This document shows, one piece after another, positions 21,717 through 33,594 of a DNA stretch of 39,207 nucleotides. Source of the stretch: Patescibacteria group bacterium UBA4664 (GTDB lineage: Bacteria > Patescibacteriota > Saccharimonadia > CAILAD01 > BJGX01). The translations under genes and the position numbers were made by a program. The DNA lies in the NCBI GenBank assembly GCA_943354575.1, contig CALRCL010000003.1, forward strand, positions 1 to 39,207, in the 5' to 3' direction. The notes beneath the pieces are model-generated. The model saw only the letters and a list, made by a program, of their open reading frames with translations, did no database searches and had not been told where the DNA came from. Position 1 is the first letter of the stretch. Every line of letters starts with the position of its first letter.

Positions 21717-23660
21717 CTACCTAGTGTTCTCTAATTTATCGAGCAGACCCACAGCAGTTTGATTGCTACTATTTAAGGCTAACGCCTTTTTCAAGCTTTC
21801 TATGGCTTTCGGGTTGTCTCCATTGGCTATCAGCAAGATAGCTCGGAGTGTTAATATGTTAGAAATTTGAGCGACAAGATTGGGTCTAAGGGGTGCCTTG
21901 GCGCGGATTGTAGCATCATCATAATTCGTCAATATCCTATCGCTAAGCTCAAGTGCCTTTTGGGATTCATTATTGCGGGAAAGGAACCCGATATAGCTGA
22001 CATATATATCCAAATTATTAAACTGCGAACGACTCAAGGCTAGCTCGTAATTCTGACGGGCAGCTGAATGGTCTCCTTTGATATCGTAGATTTTAGCTAG
22101 TAGCAAATAGTTTTGATTATCAAATGGGTCAGCACTAATAGCTTTTTCGGTTAGCTTCCTGGCAGCTTCTAGTCTTTCAGCGCGTGCAGCTTGGTCACCA
22201 TTGACTGCCTCATTAATTAGATCGGCCGCTTGCATACCAATGATATCAGGGCTATAGAGTAGGGTACCGCTTGCGGCCAATAAGGATTTAGTGCGGTCTT
22301 CAGATGTGAAGCCGGTATATTCAGTTACTAAGTCTAGATTCATTTTAGATAAAAAATAATTAAAAGATAATAGGCTTGCCGCTATTATTAAAAATGCAGC
22401 TAGACCATAAAATACATACTTCAGCTTAGCTAATATAGGAAGTTGATTTTTAGACAACTCGAGATTGTCATCCGACGCGATGGATACTATACCCAGAAGA
22501 ATGAGTACTAAAAACAATATTGCCGGGTAAATAAAGTCTGTGCTGAAAAAAGCGTGTGCCAGTACGGCTAAAATACCAACTCCAGGGATTAGAACGTTGT
22601 TTTTGTCTCGATTTTTTATAATTGAAGTCAGCAAATAGAGTATAGCCAAGGACAATAATCCAAACCCCACAAGACCTGCTTCGGAGAAAACCTTGAGAAA
22701 GATGTTGTGCGGATCGTTTGTCTCGGCCATAGCATTGAGCTGGTAGCTTTGATAAATAGATCTAAAGGTGCCATAGCCAGTGCCCAACACAGGATAGTCT
22801 TTTATGATATTTAGGGTGCCAGACCAATAGCTTTCTCTATCGGAAAGGCTATTGCCAAGTGTTTCCTGAACCTGCTTACTGGTGTTGGTTGTATTGATAT
22901 TGATATTATTTTTAAATACCACAGATCTTATAAAATAAAGTGTCGACGCTAGAAGTATTGAAAGGACTAGCACTTTCAGCAGGCAAAGAATCCACTTTTT
23001 CTTTTCTTTGACTAATATGACAAGCAGAACAAGGCACGGAATAAAAATGACGTAGGCGCTTCTTGAGAAAGTTAGCCAGAAGCCAGCAGACAATACTGCA
23101 GCAGCCACCAAATAGTAGCTCCTGGCGCGACCTTTTGCCTGTGAATATCTATAAACAGTATAAATTATTACTGGCATCAAATATGCTGCCGTGGCATTCG
23201 GCCAGTATAGTAATGTCACAAACCTGCCATCTACGCTGTTTAGCATGTACTCTCCGATGCCCCATATTACAGTCGCTAGCGTAGAGCCAATCCATAGTAT
23301 CTGCCAAAGGTGATAGAGTTTTTCGTCGCATAAAAATTTGCGGGTTACTTCATATAGCAACCCGCCAACAATCAGCAATGTCACCCCTAGTGTAGTATCG
23401 AATCTACTTATGGACCACAAGTATGACATAGCCAGCCAAATACCCAGGGACAAAAGTAGCAACGACAATTTGTTAATGCTCGGTTGAACCTCTTTCTTAC
23501 TCTGATACAAGCAAATACCTAGCACCATAAGACTGGCTGAATATACAATATAGGCGACCCAATCTAATCCACCTGTCATCCAACTACAAGACAAGAATAG
23601 GATACCAGTTAGTGCCAATATTTGATTAAGGGCAAACTTAGTACTTTTAAAATCATGCAT
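21717..23660 (-). CDS. O-antigen ligase-like polytopic protein with C-terminal TPRs
   Basis: The first 430 residues contain about eleven membrane helices and a large external loop with the Wzy_C/O-antigen ligase signature NDPHNIFLKVFSEAGLVGFGLL, preceded by VLGTGYGTFRSIYQSYQ. Proteins of this family (WaaL, PglL, Wzy) join lipid-linked glycans to an acceptor. From about residue 470 to 645 there are TPR-like helical repeats (LLLAKIYDIKGDHSAARQNYELAL; AIESLKKALALNSSNQTAVGLL). This ligase-TPR fusion suggests glycosylation or polymerisation of a surface glycan, but the substrate cannot be read. The start has no Shine-Dalgarno; a GATAAT/TATACT pair lies 4-9 nt upstream. It is bracketed by the two 28-bp repeats and has lower GC than its neighbours. 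Confidence 0.8.
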   Translation of the reverse strand: MHDFKSTKFALNQILALTGILFLSCSWMTGGLDWVAYIVYSASLMVLGICLYQSKKEVQPSINKLSLLLLSLGIWLAMSYLWSISRFDTTLGVTLLIVGGLLYEVTRKFLCDEKLYHLWQILWIGSTLATVIWGIGEYMLNSVDGRFVTLLYWPNATAAYLMPVIIYTVYRYSQAKGRARSYYLVAAAVLSAGFWLTFSRSAYVIFIPCLVLLVILVKEKKKWILCLLKVLVLSILLASTLYFIRSVVFKNNININTTNTSKQVQETLGNSLSDRESYWSGTLNIIKDYPVLGTGYGTFRSIYQSYQLNAMAETNDPHNIFLKVFSEAGLVGFGLLSLAILYLLTSIIKNRDKNNVLIPGVGILAVLAHAFFSTDFIYPAILFLVLILLGIVSIASDDNLELSKNQLPILAKLKYVFYGLAAFLIIAASLLSFNYFLSKMNLDLVTEYTGFTSEDRTKSLLAASGTLLYSPDIIGMQAADLINEAVNGDQAARAERLEAARKLTEKAISADPFDNQNYLLLAKIYDIKGDHSAARQNYELALSRSQFNNLDIYVSYIGFLSRNNESQKALELSDRILTNYDDATIRAKAPLRPNLVAQISNILTLRAILLIANGDNPKAIESLKKALALNSSNQTAVGLLDKLENTR

Positions 23661-25745: not shown

Positions 25746-25851
25746 TCTAAAAAATTTATAAAGTTCTAGTGCTTAGTCAATCAATGCACCTTTTTAATAC
25801 TATTTTTTTAGTAGATCAGTTAGAGTCTAATGTAATAAACTTTTTTTGAGC

Positions 25852-25857
25852 TATAAT
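25852..25857 (+). promoter_or_regulatory. murE-like -10 box, leaderless spacing
   Basis: A perfect TATAAT ends 6 nt before the ATG; no Shine-Dalgarno exists. The position rules out use of the upstream in-frame ATG at 25846. Confidence 0.65.
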
Positions 25858-25863
25858 GTAAGT

Positions 25864-27186
25864 ATGAAAAAAATGCTCAAAAAAATTGTTCAGCCAATAA
25901 TTCCAAAATCATTCATAAATTTTTTACACTACAGCGAATCGCTGGCTGCGGCCCAGAAGTATAAGCACCCAGGCAACAAGATGATTGTGATTGGGCTGGT
26001 CGGTAGCAAGGGCAAAACCACAACTGCCAATATGCTGTGGTCGATACTCTCAGCCGGTGGATCTAAGGTCGGGCTTATAGGTACCGCCAATATTCGTTAT
26101 GGGCAAAAAGAAGAACTCAATCGTTATCACATGACTATGCCGGGCGCTTTTGTGCTGCAGCGGCTGCTCGCAAAAATGTCGGCTATTAATTGTCAGTATG
26201 TAATTATGGAGGTTCCGTCGGAGGGTCAGACTCAATACCGACATGTTGGTATTAATTTTGATGTATTAATATTTACCAATGTCACCAATGAGCTAATGGC
26301 GGCCCACGACTTTAGCCTCGAAACCCTGCACAAACACAACAAACGCGTCTTTAAGCGACTCGCCCACTCCAAGCGTAAAACTATCGGGCTACAAAAAACA
26401 CCCAAAATAATTGTTGCCAACATCGACAGCAAAGATGCCCCAAACTACCTTCTGTTTCAGGCTGATAAAAAACTAACTTTTGGCACCAAAGCCAGCGCTG
26501 ACTACATTATAAAAGATGTCCAAGATACCCAAAACGGCATCAGCTTCGATATTAACAACACAAGCTATAGGGTTAAGATGCTTGGCAAAATAAATGCCGT
26601 TAACGCTGCTGGAGCTATCGCCACCGCCACCGCCCTTGGAGCAAATAAAAAAGCCATTGCGTTGGGACTCAGCAAGCTACCAACAATCCCGGGCCGCATG
26701 GAAGTTATCGAAGGCAAGCAGCCATTTACTGTGATAGTCGATTACGCCCACGAGCAAGCCAGTATGACCGCACTGATGGACAGTGCGCGCGATATGAAGC
26801 CAAAAGGTGCCAAGGTTATTACTCTTTTGGGCGCCGAAGGTGGCGGGCGCGACAAGGCCAAACGCCCCGAAATGGGCGCAATCTGCGCCAAGGGTTCAGA
26901 TATAATAATACTTAGTAATGTCGACCCCTATGATGACGATCCTATGACAATTCTTGCTGATATCTCTGAAGGGGCGCTTAGCACAGGTGCCGAAAAAAAT
27001 AAGAATATGTTTATTGTCCCCGACCGCCGCGAAGGTATCCGTAAGGCCCTTGAGCTAGCTAGCAAAGACGACTTGGTGCTAATTACCGGCAAAGGTGCCG
27101 AACAGTCGATGGAAATTGGCGGCCAGTCGATAGCTTGGGATGACAGAAAAGTTGTCAGAGAAGAACTGAATAAGTTAGTCGGCTAG
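25864..27186 (+). CDS. murE: MurE-like Mur ligase lacking the UDP-binding N-terminal domain
   Basis: Mur ligases add amino acids to the peptidoglycan precursor using ATP. The P-loop GLVGSKGKTTTANML is at about 44-58, whereas in full MurE it comes after an N-terminal UDP-binding domain of roughly 100 residues; that domain is missing or tiny here. The central and C-terminal domains follow: EVPSEGQTQYRH (MurE has EVSSHAL), NVTNELMAAHDFSLE (NLTxDHLDxHG), and DYAHEQASM (DYAHxPxxL). The MurE DNPR motif that contacts diaminopimelate is replaced by SNVDPYDDDP, so the added residue cannot be predicted. The start was set at ATG 25864, 6 nt after TATAAT; the longer reading from 25846 would begin upstream of that box. 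Confidence 0.82.
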   Translation: MKKMLKKIVQPIIPKSFINFLHYSESLAAAQKYKHPGNKMIVIGLVGSKGKTTTANMLWSILSAGGSKVGLIGTANIRYGQKEELNRYHMTMPGAFVLQRLLAKMSAINCQYVIMEVPSEGQTQYRHVGINFDVLIFTNVTNELMAAHDFSLETLHKHNKRVFKRLAHSKRKTIGLQKTPKIIVANIDSKDAPNYLLFQADKKLTFGTKASADYIIKDVQDTQNGISFDINNTSYRVKMLGKINAVNAAGAIATATALGANKKAIALGLSKLPTIPGRMEVIEGKQPFTVIVDYAHEQASMTALMDSARDMKPKGAKVITLLGAEGGGRDKAKRPEMGAICAKGSDIIILSNVDPYDDDPMTILADISEGALSTGAEKNKNMFIVPDRREGIRKALELASKDDLVLITGKGAEQSMEIGGQSIAWDDRKVVREELNKLVG

Positions 27187-27203
27187 GCTTTGTAGGTGCA
27201 GCT

Positions 27204-29666
27204 CTAGGTATATACCGTACTAGGAACATCTCCTCCGTTGAACCTTACAGTGCCGTCAGGATCAATAATGATACTACCAGATGTTATTTCCTTTGAGGCT
27301 TCAACCTTCACATCATGGTAATCAGCAATAGACTCAGCGATATTTTTGCCATAGGTCACTTCTCCCGCCGTTGAGCAAGCTTTCAAAATAACCCTGAATC
27401 GTTTTCCTAAATGCCTTTGATAGTTATTGGATTTTTGGCTATTTGGTAGGCCTAACAGATAGTCGTCGGTGTCAATTCTTTGCCCTTCCGTACCAAGTAA
27501 TATTCCTTCCGGGTTGGCGTGCCCATCTATTACGAAGTTTTCCAGGCCGCTGTCTTCTTCGGGTATTCGACCGTTTGCTCGTTCCCTATTGCCAACAGCC
27601 ACCGCCACCTTTGCCATTTCAGTGCTATCGTTGGCTTCAAAAAAGAAAAGCCCGTCGTCTCCGAATAATTTATGAAAGCTTGAGCCCACGTCATCAACAG
27701 CACCGTTCCAATCGGATCTTGCACCTACAACGATATTTTTTACAGTTAAAGCACCGGATTTCCAGCTGATCAATTGTTCATGTAATAATTCGGGCTGATA
27801 ACGCATAAAATTATAAATGCCAAATGTTTCTACTATTGCCAAAGCCTCTTCGGTGCCAAAACGCTCTACATATGTTGTAAGTGCCTCTGCTTGTTGTGCT
27901 ATACGTTGACCCTGCTCTGCCAGAGTGCCATCAATATCTTCTGGATTCACGCTAGTTCGCATTTCGTCATTTTTATACAATCTTCGCCTTAATGAAGAGT
28001 AGCTAGCCCATGATGCAAACATCTCCTGCGCCAACTGTGGTGGTATGCCAAGACTTTCGAGGCGCTTACTTAGCTCCGGCAAATCTACAATCTTGGGCTT
28101 TGATTCAATATTTATTGAGCTTAATTGTCCAATTTCTCTGGCTGGTCGCCAGTACTCTTGATAGGCCAGCTCTGATTCATGACCAATCTTCCAATCGCTG
28201 CAATATCTTTCGACTGTACTAGGTTCTTTTCTACTCACTTCAAATAGCCCTCTAACCCCAATGTCTTCGATTGTCAGCCCGTATTTTTGAATTTCATCTA
28301 TGGATCTGACTATTTCATTGGCGGTAGTCTCAGGATTTTGGCCATTTAGTATTACCTTTTGTATTTCACGGCGCAGAGAATCGTCCAAGCTCTTGATTGA
28401 TGCTTCTATTATTGAAGCTGCTCGCCCTAATGCAATTGGGTATTCTGCTCTAGCGATATCACTCATAAGAGCTAGGTTTGAATCTGCCGAAACATTGGCC
28501 AGCCTTAGGCCTTCGGCAATATTTTTGGCACGCTCTACTGGATTATCGTTGGCATAAAATTGCGCTGATAATCCCTGTATGTAATCATCAGCTATGCCCT
28601 TGTCATCGCAATATTCTTTCATTATTTTCAGCGAGGCTATGTCCTCTTCCCTAAATCTTGCCAAATCTACTCCGTAGCCAGGATTTAGCAATCTATAGAG
28701 TTCTCGCAAGCCCTTTTGGGGGTCATCCGAACCATACATTGCGTTAGCAGCTTTTAGGGCACTCATAGGGTCTTCAAAGTTTGCAAGTTCTTGTGCAACT
28801 GAGCTTATATCTGGATTAAATTCCTCTTCGGCACTTTTGCGCTGGCCCAAAGATTCAATAGCCAGGCTAAGTGAGGCTAAATAGCGGGCAGACTTTTCTT
28901 TGTCGCCTATTGATATAACTTTTTTTAGTAAAGTTTTGTTATATTCCTGTAGTTCATATTTTTTAATGGCGTCTATGGAGCCTGCCGTTTTAGCCAAATC
29001 ACTACCTCCAGACTCCAATAGTTCCGTCAAAGAACTCTGCTGATCTGCGGCTAGCCAAAACTCGCTAGGTATATCAGCTGCTGAATCAGGGTCTGCAGAC
29101 CTAGTGATTATCCAATCTGTCACAGCTTCACTGACACCCTTAACTTTCAGTTCTTGCCTTAGCTCATCTTGCTTTTGTTGACATAATTTTTCCAACGTTG
29201 TCTTGATGTCACTTTTAGTTTTAGGCTCTAGCTCCACATATTCTAAGACGCGCTCTAAGTGCTGTGAATCTTGTGGCGATGATGATACAAGGTCTTTAGC
29301 GAGATCAAAATGCCCATCTTGGACAAGCTTTACCACGGCTAAATCAAGAGTATAAGTATAGCTGTCATTTATGCGATACGTACTATTGCCTGCTTGGCGC
29401 CTTATTCTGAGATTTCTTAATGCCAACTGTAGCTCATCCTTCGAAGAGGTGGTGCTGGCTTTTTCCAAAATTCCAACCAATTCATCCTCAGGAACATTTT
29501 CTATTCCTAGTCTCTTTAGGCTAGCGCTTGTCTCCTCATTTGCTGCTGGGCCTGTAATGTACTCAGAATTCTGGCCATTTTCTTGAGCAAGAGCTTTTAG
29601 TTCGTCATAAATAGTGCTCGGGCCTTGTTTGGGCCCGTTTTCACCTGATTTTAATTCTTTTGACAT
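27204..29666 (-). CDS. Large unknown protein with a C-terminal clan CD (caspase-like) peptidase signature
   Basis: The 820-residue protein has no signal peptide or membrane helix. Residues 1-650 are almost entirely predicted helix, with many short Leu/Ala/Glu/Lys repeats that suggest a solenoid, and match no family I know. The last 150 residues change character: a beta strand ending in FVIDGHANPEG (His716), then RFRVILKACSTAGEV (Cys764), then ADYHDVKVEASKE. A His in GHA/GHG and a Cys after a hydrophobic strand 48 residues later is the arrangement of clan CD peptidases (caspases, CHAT, C80). Peptidase activity is therefore a reasonable guess, not shown. A TACAAT lies 9 nt before the ATG. The gene faces murE-like convergently and stands alone. 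Confidence 0.72.
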   Translation of the reverse strand: MSKELKSGENGPKQGPSTIYDELKALAQENGQNSEYITGPAANEETSASLKRLGIENVPEDELVGILEKASTTSSKDELQLALRNLRIRRQAGNSTYRINDSYTYTLDLAVVKLVQDGHFDLAKDLVSSSPQDSQHLERVLEYVELEPKTKSDIKTTLEKLCQQKQDELRQELKVKGVSEAVTDWIITRSADPDSAADIPSEFWLAADQQSSLTELLESGGSDLAKTAGSIDAIKKYELQEYNKTLLKKVISIGDKEKSARYLASLSLAIESLGQRKSAEEEFNPDISSVAQELANFEDPMSALKAANAMYGSDDPQKGLRELYRLLNPGYGVDLARFREEDIASLKIMKEYCDDKGIADDYIQGLSAQFYANDNPVERAKNIAEGLRLANVSADSNLALMSDIARAEYPIALGRAASIIEASIKSLDDSLRREIQKVILNGQNPETTANEIVRSIDEIQKYGLTIEDIGVRGLFEVSRKEPSTVERYCSDWKIGHESELAYQEYWRPAREIGQLSSINIESKPKIVDLPELSKRLESLGIPPQLAQEMFASWASYSSLRRRLYKNDEMRTSVNPEDIDGTLAEQGQRIAQQAEALTTYVERFGTEEALAIVETFGIYNFMRYQPELLHEQLISWKSGALTVKNIVVGARSDWNGAVDDVGSSFHKLFGDDGLFFFEANDSTEMAKVAVAVGNRERANGRIPEEDSGLENFVIDGHANPEGILLGTEGQRIDTDDYLLGLPNSQKSNNYQRHLGKRFRVILKACSTAGEVTYGKNIAESIADYHDVKVEASKEITSGSIIIDPDGTVRFNGGDVPSTVYT

Positions 29667-29691
29667 GCTACCAATATTGTAACATAAGGAC

Positions 29692-30561
29692 TTATAATAC
29701 TAATTTTTCCTTCACCGCCACTGGACACAATCCATTGTGCTTCTTGTCGCACTCTTTGCAGCAAATAAACAGCTGGTGGCAATCTGGCTTGGCGCAATCA
29801 ATGTATCGGTCGCTAGATTTTTTACAGTGCGCGCATTTGCTCAGCACCTTCTGGCCACTCTTGCTGTCGCCGTTGGTTGTCATGCGCTCATCAAACACGA
29901 AGTTTTTGCCTATAAAGTAGCCGTCGGGGTATTTTTCGAGGTATTTTACAATCCCGCCTTCTAGCTGGTAGACATCGGTAAAGCCCTCTTCGGCAAGTAA
30001 CGCTGTGGCTTTTTCGCAGCGGATTCCGCCAGTACAGTATGTAACTACTTTTTTATTCTTATCTATCTTCAGGTTCTTGATTTTTTCGGGTAGCTCATAA
30101 AACTTGACCGTGTTGGGCTGTATCGCACCGTCAAACCGCCCAACCTCGTACTCATAATTATTGCGCATATCTACCACCACCATATCTTCGCCCCTTTCAA
30201 AGAGCTGATGCATTGATTTAGGCGTTAGGTATTGGCCGGTTTTTTTCATATCGACCTTTTTACCGAGCGTCACTATCTCGGGCCGGTACTTGACTATCAT
30301 TTTTGGGAAAGGCATTTTACCAGCCGGGGTACGTTTGAATACGATACCTCCAAAGCTCGGGTGGGCGTTCATGTACTCAACATATTGCCTGAGCTCGGAG
30401 CGATGGCCGGCTACGGTACCGTTAATTCCCTCTTCGCTAATTAAAATACGGCCCTTCAAGCCGATGCCAGTACAGACCAGCTTGTGCTGTGTGGTTTCGA
30501 ACTTCGGGTCAGCGATATCTACGAATTTATAATAAAGTAGTACAAAAATGTTATTCGACAT
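29692..30561 (-). CDS. trhO: tRNA uridine-34 hydroxylase TrhO (rhodanese family)
   Basis: TrhO (YceA) hydroxylates uridine 34 in the tRNA wobble position. The protein has the N-terminal ferredoxin-like acylphosphatase-type domain (LVCTGIGLKGRILISEEGINGTVAG), a rhodanese domain with the catalytic loop VTYCTGGIRCEKA, and a C-terminal cysteine-rich zinc-binding segment (CAHCKKSSDRYIDCAKPDCHQLFICCKEC). Length 289 is usual. No Shine-Dalgarno; an extended -10 (TGC TATAAT, 30576-30571) lies 9 nt before the ATG. Its promoter diverges from that of pyrH. Confidence 0.95.
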   Translation of the reverse strand: MSNNIFVLLYYKFVDIADPKFETTQHKLVCTGIGLKGRILISEEGINGTVAGHRSELRQYVEYMNAHPSFGGIVFKRTPAGKMPFPKMIVKYRPEIVTLGKKVDMKKTGQYLTPKSMHQLFERGEDMVVVDMRNNYEYEVGRFDGAIQPNTVKFYELPEKIKNLKIDKNKKVVTYCTGGIRCEKATALLAEEGFTDVYQLEGGIVKYLEKYPDGYFIGKNFVFDERMTTNGDSKSGQKVLSKCAHCKKSSDRYIDCAKPDCHQLFICCKECDKKHNGLCPVAVKEKLVL

Positions 30562-32781: not shown

Positions 32782-33594
32782 TTAAAAATGAGAATGCTCT
32801 GAATACTTTTTTAGTATCAGGCTATGGACTATCGTCTTGTCGTCTCCATAGACCTTGCTCTGGTGGGTAAAATGCTCTAGTAGGTCGTTATTGACCGGCT
32901 CATAAATAAACCCCCTCAGACCCTCAACGTTACGACATACCACCACCGCGCCTGCAGGCATAGTATCGCAGATTTGACGCATGATTAGCGGCTTTGGTTT
33001 GGCCAATGCTGCCACAACGATATGGGTATAACCCGAGTAATCATGCTCCGCCGCGTCACAATACCTGATGCTAATTGTCTTATCTAGCCCCAGCTCAGAT
33101 ATAATTTTGGTGGATAGAACAACAGCTTCGGGATTATTGTCTATAATTGTGATTTTACAATTATTCTGTTTGCTATAGGCGATTGCTGTTTCGGGAAACG
33201 GCCCTCCACCAATAAATACAACTTTTGATTCGGGCGTAAAACCAGCTTCTAGGGATTCCTTTTTAGCAAACTCAAAGGTACGGCCGATGAATTGATCCTT
33301 AAGAAAGTCTATTTTGCCAGAAACGATATCGAGGTAGGTGGATGTCTCCAGAAAAACCTCAAACAATTCATAAACGCGTCGAGTTTGGTGAGCTAAATTA
33401 CGAAAGTGTGCAGTATCTAAAAGCTCCTTCGATAGTTCATTGTACTGACGATCACGAGCGATGTTCTCTAACTGTTCTATGAGTGTGGTAAAGTCTTCAC
33501 TCAAAAAAACCGCTGGAGACTTTTCGGCGGCACAGAGCTCGGCGGTGATTGCTTCGATGTCAGATTTAAAATTATTATAAAGGTTATTTTTCAC
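32782..33594 (-). CDS. Nicotianamine synthase-like protein
   Basis: The protein has two parts as in nicotianamine synthase: a helical N-terminal domain (1-110) and a Rossmann SAM-binding domain with SKVVFIGGGPFPETAIAYSK (family: VxFIGSGPLPLTSI), the SAM acid ITIIDNNPEAV, CDAAEHDYSGYTHIVVAAL, and the closing block GAVVVCRNVEGLRGFIYEPV...TIVHSLILKK, which is the family's hallmark (RSAHGARxFLYPxV, VxNSVIIxRK). Such enzymes join aminobutyrate units from SAM to make nicotianamine or opine metallophores such as staphylopine. No opine dehydrogenase or metal transporter is visible nearby, so the product is unknown. The start is GTG; a TATGGT lies 6 nt upstream. dus and a His-rich membrane protein follow. 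Confidence 0.82.
   Translation of the reverse strand: MKNNLYNNFKSDIEAITAELCAAEKSPAVFLSEDFTTLIEQLENIARDRQYNELSKELLDTAHFRNLAHQTRRVYELFEVFLETSTYLDIVSGKIDFLKDQFIGRTFEFAKKESLEAGFTPESKVVFIGGGPFPETAIAYSKQNNCKITIIDNNPEAVVLSTKIISELGLDKTISIRYCDAAEHDYSGYTHIVVAALAKPKPLIMRQICDTMPAGAVVVCRNVEGLRGFIYEPVNNDLLEHFTHQSKVYGDDKTIVHSLILKKYSEHSHF

What the first reader, a model, noticed from the sequence alone, without database searches (positions are those of the whole stretch)
27204..29666. 820-residue helical protein ending in a clan CD cysteine peptidase-like domain
His716 in DGHA and Cys764 in LKACSTAG sit on strand ends 48 residues apart, as in caspases, CHAT and C80 autoprocessing domains. The rest is a long helical array of no known family. 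Stand-alone caspase-like proteins with helical scaffolds can be toxins, proteases acting on partners or defence effectors; in a reduced genome that devotes 2.5 kb to it, the role should matter.
Basis: inference. Interest (0 to 1): 0.7.

Follow-up and report, generated by a model that had tools for sequence, protein, structure and literature searches.

The report
Caspase-like protease of dwarf epibiont bacteria
This gene encodes a predicted protein-cutting enzyme built like a caspase, from a previously unnamed family scattered among ultrasmall, probably parasitic bacteria; its closest solved relative is a putative cysteine-protease effector carried inside a bacterial injection tube, so it may be a tool these cells use on their hosts.

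Summary
The ORF at 27204-29666 (-) encodes 820 residues. His716 and Cys764 lie just after strands 3 and 4 of a confidently predicted caspase-like fold (pLDDT 88.8, pTM 0.87), 48 residues apart. With Glu677 they are invariant in 25 of 25 family members; Asp652 is kept in 24. Foldseek's best PDB match is Tce1 (DUF4347), a putative cysteine-protease T6SS effector, then the MARTX cysteine protease domain (C80) and caspases. A profile search also ranks Tce1 first, but only at E 0.017. No Pfam, NCBIfam, PADLOC or PHROG model recognises the family. It is a stand-alone, leaderless, acidic, sporadic family: about 20 of 393 Saccharimonadia genomes sampled, plus five genomes of other Patescibacteria classes. 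The window gene is inserted between a murE-like and a trhO-like gene that abut in four relatives, and its GC3 is unusually low; both suggest horizontal gain. The N-terminal ~470 residues are predicted helical at low confidence and not conserved. I judge it a clan CD cysteine peptidase of a new family (about 0.92). Its role is inferred: effector in the host cell (0.45), acting on the cell's own proteins (0.25), defence (0.2), non-proteolytic (0.1).

The parts
27204..29666 (-). whole ORF, 820 aa, leaderless acidic protein (net charge -41)
28107..29666 (-). N-terminal region, residues 1-520: disordered start, then predicted helices; not conserved in relatives
   Evidence: full-length model, pLDDT mostly 30-60 up to residue ~470; relatives align only from ~485-525 onwards
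27738..28106 (-). conserved helical lead-in to the catalytic domain, residues 521-643 (FGIYNFMRYQPELLHEQL)
   Evidence: high-confidence helices; conserved in close relatives
27207..27737 (-). caspase-like catalytic domain, residues 644-820
   Evidence: model and Foldseek; family alignment
27711..27713 (-). Asp652 after strand 1 (SDWNG motif); possible S1-pocket residue (inference)
   Evidence: present in 24/25 members; aligned with the Asp of RGDSGSAF in Tce1
27636..27638 (-). Glu677 at the end of strand 2 (FFFEA); family-specific invariant
   Evidence: 25/25 members; not shared by Tce1 in the profile alignment
27519..27521 (-). His716, predicted catalytic, after strand 3
   Evidence: 25/25 members; aligned with the conserved His of Tce1; codon checked
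27375..27377 (-). Cys764, predicted nucleophile, after strand 4
   Evidence: 25/25 members; aligned with the conserved Cys of Tce1; codon checked
25846..27186 (+). flanking Mur-ligase (murE-like) gene, left border of the insertion slot
   Evidence: Pfam; lies within about 35 bases of the trhO-like gene in four relatives
29692..30561 (-). flanking UPF0176/rhodanese (trhO-like) gene, right border of the insertion slot
   Evidence: Pfam

Best explanation
The protein is a leaderless clan CD cysteine peptidase of a new Patescibacteria family on the DUF4347/C80 side of the clan. His716 activates Cys764, which attacks a peptide bond. The acidic residues at the ends of strands 1 and 2 (Asp652, Glu677) probably shape the substrate pocket; by analogy with metacaspases and MALT1 this hints at cutting after Arg or Lys. 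The variable helical N-terminus is the targeting or restraining part. The gene moves between species as a single-gene cargo. Most likely role: an effector made by the epibiont and passed into the host bacterium, plausibly by the type IV secretion system, where it cuts one or a few host proteins. Shown here: ORF, fold prediction, invariance of the dyad, family and its scatter, insertion site. Inferred: catalytic activity, substrate preference, role of the N-terminus, export, host target. Fold and dyad about 0.92; the whole chain including the effector role 0.45.
For: Confident caspase-like model with H and C after strands 3 and 4. Foldseek: Tce1 E 5.9e-4, MARTX CPD 1e-3, then caspases; Tce1 is also the top sequence-profile match, though only at E 0.017, with His on His and Cys on Cys. 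Dyad plus Glu677 invariant in 25/25. Profile-profile links to other classes at 99.0% (E 7.9e-18) and to the second Saccharimonadia branch at 97.1% (E 5.7e-11). Tce1 and Tce2 are Hcp3-loaded putative cysteine-protease effectors, and Tce2 toxicity in yeast needs its predicted active site (PMC13323088). No signal peptide or transmembrane segment by hydropathy, and strong acidity, in essentially all 25. Accessory insertion into a slot that is empty in four relatives, GC3 0.37 against 0.41-0.56 for eight neighbouring genes, scattered occurrence, a broken copy in another genome. The own genome has a VirB4/TraG-like ATPase. A T4SS is essential in a saccharibacterium with unknown role, and effectors have been proposed (PMC11665869).
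Against: No export signal was tested or seen, and no linkage to secretion genes was found. Occurrence in only about 5% of the class does not fit a universal parasitism tool. Tce1 is the nearest fold, but TM-scores are modest (0.55 on the target; query diluted by helices) and the shared ancestry is old. Tce1 itself was not toxic in yeast or E. coli. No activity data for this family.
Confidence: 0.45

Rival explanations
1. A cytosolic processing or regulatory protease acting on the epibiont's own proteins, for example a stress or developmental switch, held inactive by its helical N-terminus.
For: Leaderless, no linked partner. In six genomes of two families, members lie close to a ribosomal L31, RF or rpsB/tsf region, which hints at some vertical inheritance in that branch. 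Cellular caspase homologues (orthocaspases, metacaspases) are known (PMC6426788).
Against: Absent from about 95% of the class and from the same-genus genomes; no conserved substrate gene nearby; fast divergence of the N-terminus.
Confidence: 0.25
2. A defence effector: the helical N-terminus senses phage or plasmid and releases a suicidal caspase-like protease, as in TPR-CHAT/Craspase.
For: Accessory, mobile, helical region plus C-terminal caspase-like domain; weak whole-chain Foldseek resemblance to the Cas7-11-Csx29 entry (8eey_B, probability 0.20).
Against: No credible PADLOC match for any member and no conserved sensor or partner gene in about 25 neighbourhoods. Recognised defence caspases usually come with partners (own knowledge).
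Confidence: 0.2
3. The fold is kept for a non-proteolytic purpose, such as binding, and the dyad is not used for peptide hydrolysis.
For: Catalysis has not been tested; pseudo-orthocaspases exist (PMC6426788).
Against: Pseudo-enzymes lose the dyad; here H and C are the residues kept in 25/25 while most columns vary.
Confidence: 0.1

Closest known systems
DUF4347 / Tce1 (PA0256, PDB 9qpe_G), putative T6SS cysteine-protease effector
   Same: Best Foldseek match (E 5.9e-4) and best PDB profile match (E 0.017); His, Cys and the strand-1 Asp align; leaderless with an N-terminal extension.
   Different: Below the Pfam DUF4347 gathering cut-off (12 against 24.6 bits for the window; best E of 25 members 0.039); about 14% identity; Glu677 not shared; long helical N-terminus; no T6SS link.
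Peptidase C80, MARTX cysteine protease domain (3gcd, 3eeb, 3fzy)
   Same: Second-best fold (E 1e-3), caspase-like domain with a His-Cys dyad.
   Different: No C80 Pfam match; not part of a giant secreted toxin; inositol-phosphate site not tested.
Caspases (C14) and orthocaspases/metacaspases
   Same: Caspase-like order of strands; H-to-C spacing 48; caspase-3/7/8 among the Foldseek matches.
   Different: No Pfam caspase match; acidic residue rather than caspase Arg after strand 1 (comparison from own knowledge).
TPR-CHAT (Csx29, Craspase)
   Same: Helical region followed by a caspase-like domain.
   Different: No CHAT or TPR Pfam match, no CRISPR neighbours recognised, whole-chain structural match not significant.

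Membership tests
Clan CD cysteine peptidases (as a fold class) | caspase-like alpha/beta/alpha sheet | tested here: met
   AlphaFold2 model and Foldseek
Clan CD cysteine peptidases (as a fold class) | His after strand 3 and Cys after strand 4, conserved | tested here: met
   H716 and C764 in 25/25
Clan CD cysteine peptidases (as a fold class) | Cys-dependent proteolysis | not testable with these tools
   needs biochemistry
DUF4347 (PF14252) | Pfam score above gathering cut-off (24.6 bits) | tested here: not met
   12 bits for the window; best of 25 members E 0.039
DUF4347 (PF14252) | fold of the solved member Tce1 | tested here: met
   Foldseek probability 1.00, E 5.9e-4
Peptidase C80 (PF11713) | Pfam match | tested here: not met
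   no C80 match at E 1
Peptidase C80 (PF11713) | inositol hexakisphosphate activation | not testable with these tools
   no assay
TPR-CHAT / Csx29 | CHAT or TPR domain and CRISPR linkage | tested here: not met
   no CHAT/TPR in Pfam; no CRISPR genes recognised among neighbours
Caspase C14 / orthocaspase (PF00656) | Pfam match | tested here: not met
Injected effector | transfer into a host cell by a secretion system | not testable with these tools
   only indirect: leaderless protein and a VirB4/TraG-like ATPase in the genome

The most novel reading that the evidence does not exclude
A Patescibacteria-wide family of caspase-like proteases that epibionts inject into their host bacteria (or archaea): effectors of the essential but unexplained type IV secretion system of Saccharibacteria, sharing a fold with cysteine-protease effectors and toxins of other bacteria.
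Probability: 0.35. Interest if true: 0.8.

Novelty: new variant of a known kind. Interest (0 to 1): 0.52.

Why it matters
How ultrasmall epibionts act on their hosts is open: their T4SS is essential in one species, its role is unknown, and cargo is only speculated about (PMC11665869). A recognisable enzyme family with a two-residue active site gives a concrete candidate whose role can be tested by removal. It also adds a family to clan CD between DUF4347/C80 and caspases, in a group where I found no published clan CD family.

Tried and rejected
Single-sequence searches of Pfam and PDB gave nothing. A single-protein scan of genome contigs found no relative. Profile hits L005 (RecX), L049/L050/L052 (trigger factor) and L059 (asparaginase-like) were read and rejected as false positives. 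A viral or plasmid origin was searched and not supported: viral contigs with three alignments, phage and plasmid records by tblastn; the two viral structure matches (A0A8S5P2H5, A0A8S5MXG5) could not be followed because their sequences are not held. Recurrent partner genes: none beyond a shared L31/RF/rpsB neighbourhood in one branch. Hidden divergent copies at that locus in 29 rpsB loci: none. A common N-terminal module with exchangeable C-terminal parts: profiles of N-termini matched only family members and the broken copy. murE 3'-end duplication beside the window gene: none. Weak PADLOC (Cas11b, Csm2) and PHROG hits in single members were treated as chance.

Full report
WHAT WAS CHECKED. 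The ORF at 27204-29666 (-) is real and complete: ATG start, 820 aa. His716 and Cys764 are as described. A single-sequence search of Pfam finds nothing credible, and neither does PDB.

FAMILY. The genome (606,730 bases, 92% complete) has one copy. Relatives in its class align from about residue 485-525 to the end at 37-41% identity in three genomes, and at 50-66% over two pieces in a fourth, where the gene is broken by in-frame stops. The contig names are uncultured Saccharibacteria or Patescibacteria bins. A profile of four found one distant protein, which opened a second branch of 15 proteins. In a 19-protein alignment five columns were invariant, including His716 and Cys764. That profile found about 20 of 393 class genomes, not counting three trigger-factor false positives, and in the phylum sample five genomes of other classes, not counting false positives. 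E-values of those five (5e-8 to 2e-4) overlap with those of the false positives, so three of them were checked separately: profile-profile comparison of the window group with them gives 99.0%, E 7.9e-18, with His on His and Cys on Cys; with the second Saccharimonadia branch 97.1%, E 5.7e-11. Over 25 proteins His716, Cys764 and Glu677 are invariant and Asp652 is kept in 24. The prevalence figures are lower bounds, because the genome search begins with a loose first look.

STRUCTURE. Residues 440-820 model well: pLDDT 88.8, pTM 0.87. Strands 644-649, 673-678, 710-714, 758-762 and 787-790 carry Asp652 after the first, Glu677 on the second, His716 after the third and Cys764 after the fourth. Foldseek against PDB: Tce1 (9qpe_G, E 5.9e-4), the MARTX cysteine protease domain (E 1e-3), then mostly caspase-3/7/8. 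The 25-member profile ranks Tce1 first in PDB by sequence, E 0.017, which is suggestive only. The full-length model is poor before residue ~470, and a structure search with it adds no significant match beyond the catalytic domain.

CONTEXT. The murE-like and trhO-like neighbours lie within about 35 bases of each other in two same-genus genomes (G001, G003) and two same-family genomes (G004, G006), so the window gene is an insertion between convergent genes; one of those (G006) carries its family member elsewhere. Other relatives carry other genes there: a methyltransferase-like and an oxygenase-like gene (named by eye) with a duplicated murE 3' end in G002, and small genes, HAD-like by eye where I read one (G007), in others. 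GC3 of the gene is 0.37 against 0.41-0.56 for eight window genes. The catalytic-domain tree puts the window next to the broken copy from another family (88/90), but a clade with the same-family member is not rejected (p-AU 0.21). Neighbourhoods of about 25 members show no constant partner. A serine recombinase lies beside one member (L091) and related recombinase fragments beside another (L090). By hydropathy no member has a convincing transmembrane segment or signal peptide (highest value at the N-terminus 1.11, in L051), and all are acidic, -10 to -47.

MECHANISM. Shown: sequence, predicted fold, conserved dyad, scattered and mobile occurrence. Inferred: catalysis. The acidic residues at the strand 1 and 2 ends suggest a pocket for a basic residue, by analogy with metacaspases and MALT1 (own knowledge). 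For the role, the nearest fold is a putative effector: Tce1 and Tce2 are loaded into Hcp3, and Tce2 toxicity in yeast depends on its active site, while Tce1 itself was not toxic (PMC13323088). Patescibacteria live on other cells; their T4SS is essential in one species with unknown role (PMC11665869), and the window genome encodes a VirB4/TraG-like ATPase. An effector role is therefore my first choice at 0.45, with own-cell processing at 0.25, defence at 0.2 and a non-proteolytic role at 0.1.

KNOWN OR NEW. It works like a clan CD cysteine peptidase, as far as fold and conserved residues can say; it is not a member of DUF4347, C80, C14 or CHAT by their Pfam models, nor of a PADLOC defence family. 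Literature searches for caspase-like or cysteine-protease proteins in Saccharibacteria or Patescibacteria found no description of this family; the library holds open-licence papers only.

LIMITS. His-Cys distance not measured (no coordinates). AlphaFold DB not available. One broken relative was read only in pieces and not repaired.

Noticed in passing
window 27187-29691; L081 (G002), L082 (G007), L083 (G008), L084 (G009): The gap between the murE-like and trhO-like genes is a variable cargo slot: empty in G001, G003, G004 and G006, and filled with different genes in others. In G002 the insert ends with a second copy of the murE 3' end (90% identical to the window's protein), as if the element restored the gene end.
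   Followed up: partly
L112/L138, L113/L139, L109/L140 (upstream of rpsB): Large leaderless proteins of no evident family (304-457 aa seen, longer in the wider loci) occupy the variable region upstream of rpsB in several Saccharimonadia genomes, the neighbourhood where some caspase-like members sit in others.
   Followed up: partly
L012 7974-8738 (same locus as L010, L048): A relative of the window gene (50-66% identical in pieces) is broken by in-frame stops and lacks the N-terminal part.
   Followed up: yes
L090 3-263 and 3329-3706; L091 9587-11236: Serine-recombinase sequences beside two closely related family members, suggesting integration with a mobile element.
   Followed up: no
BFVD A0A8S5P2H5 and A0A8S5MXG5: Two phage proteins, one called a minor capsid protein fragment, match the model by fold with E 7e-6 and 5e-5; caspase-like domains in phage structural proteins would be worth a look.
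   Followed up: no
window 32782-33594 (-): Protein with a significant nicotianamine synthase match (PF03059, E 1.6e-14) over its C-terminal half in a 0.6 Mb genome.
   Followed up: no
window 21717-23660 (-): O-antigen ligase (Wzy_C) domain followed by TPR repeats, with GC3 0.41, the next lowest of the window genes compared.
   Followed up: no
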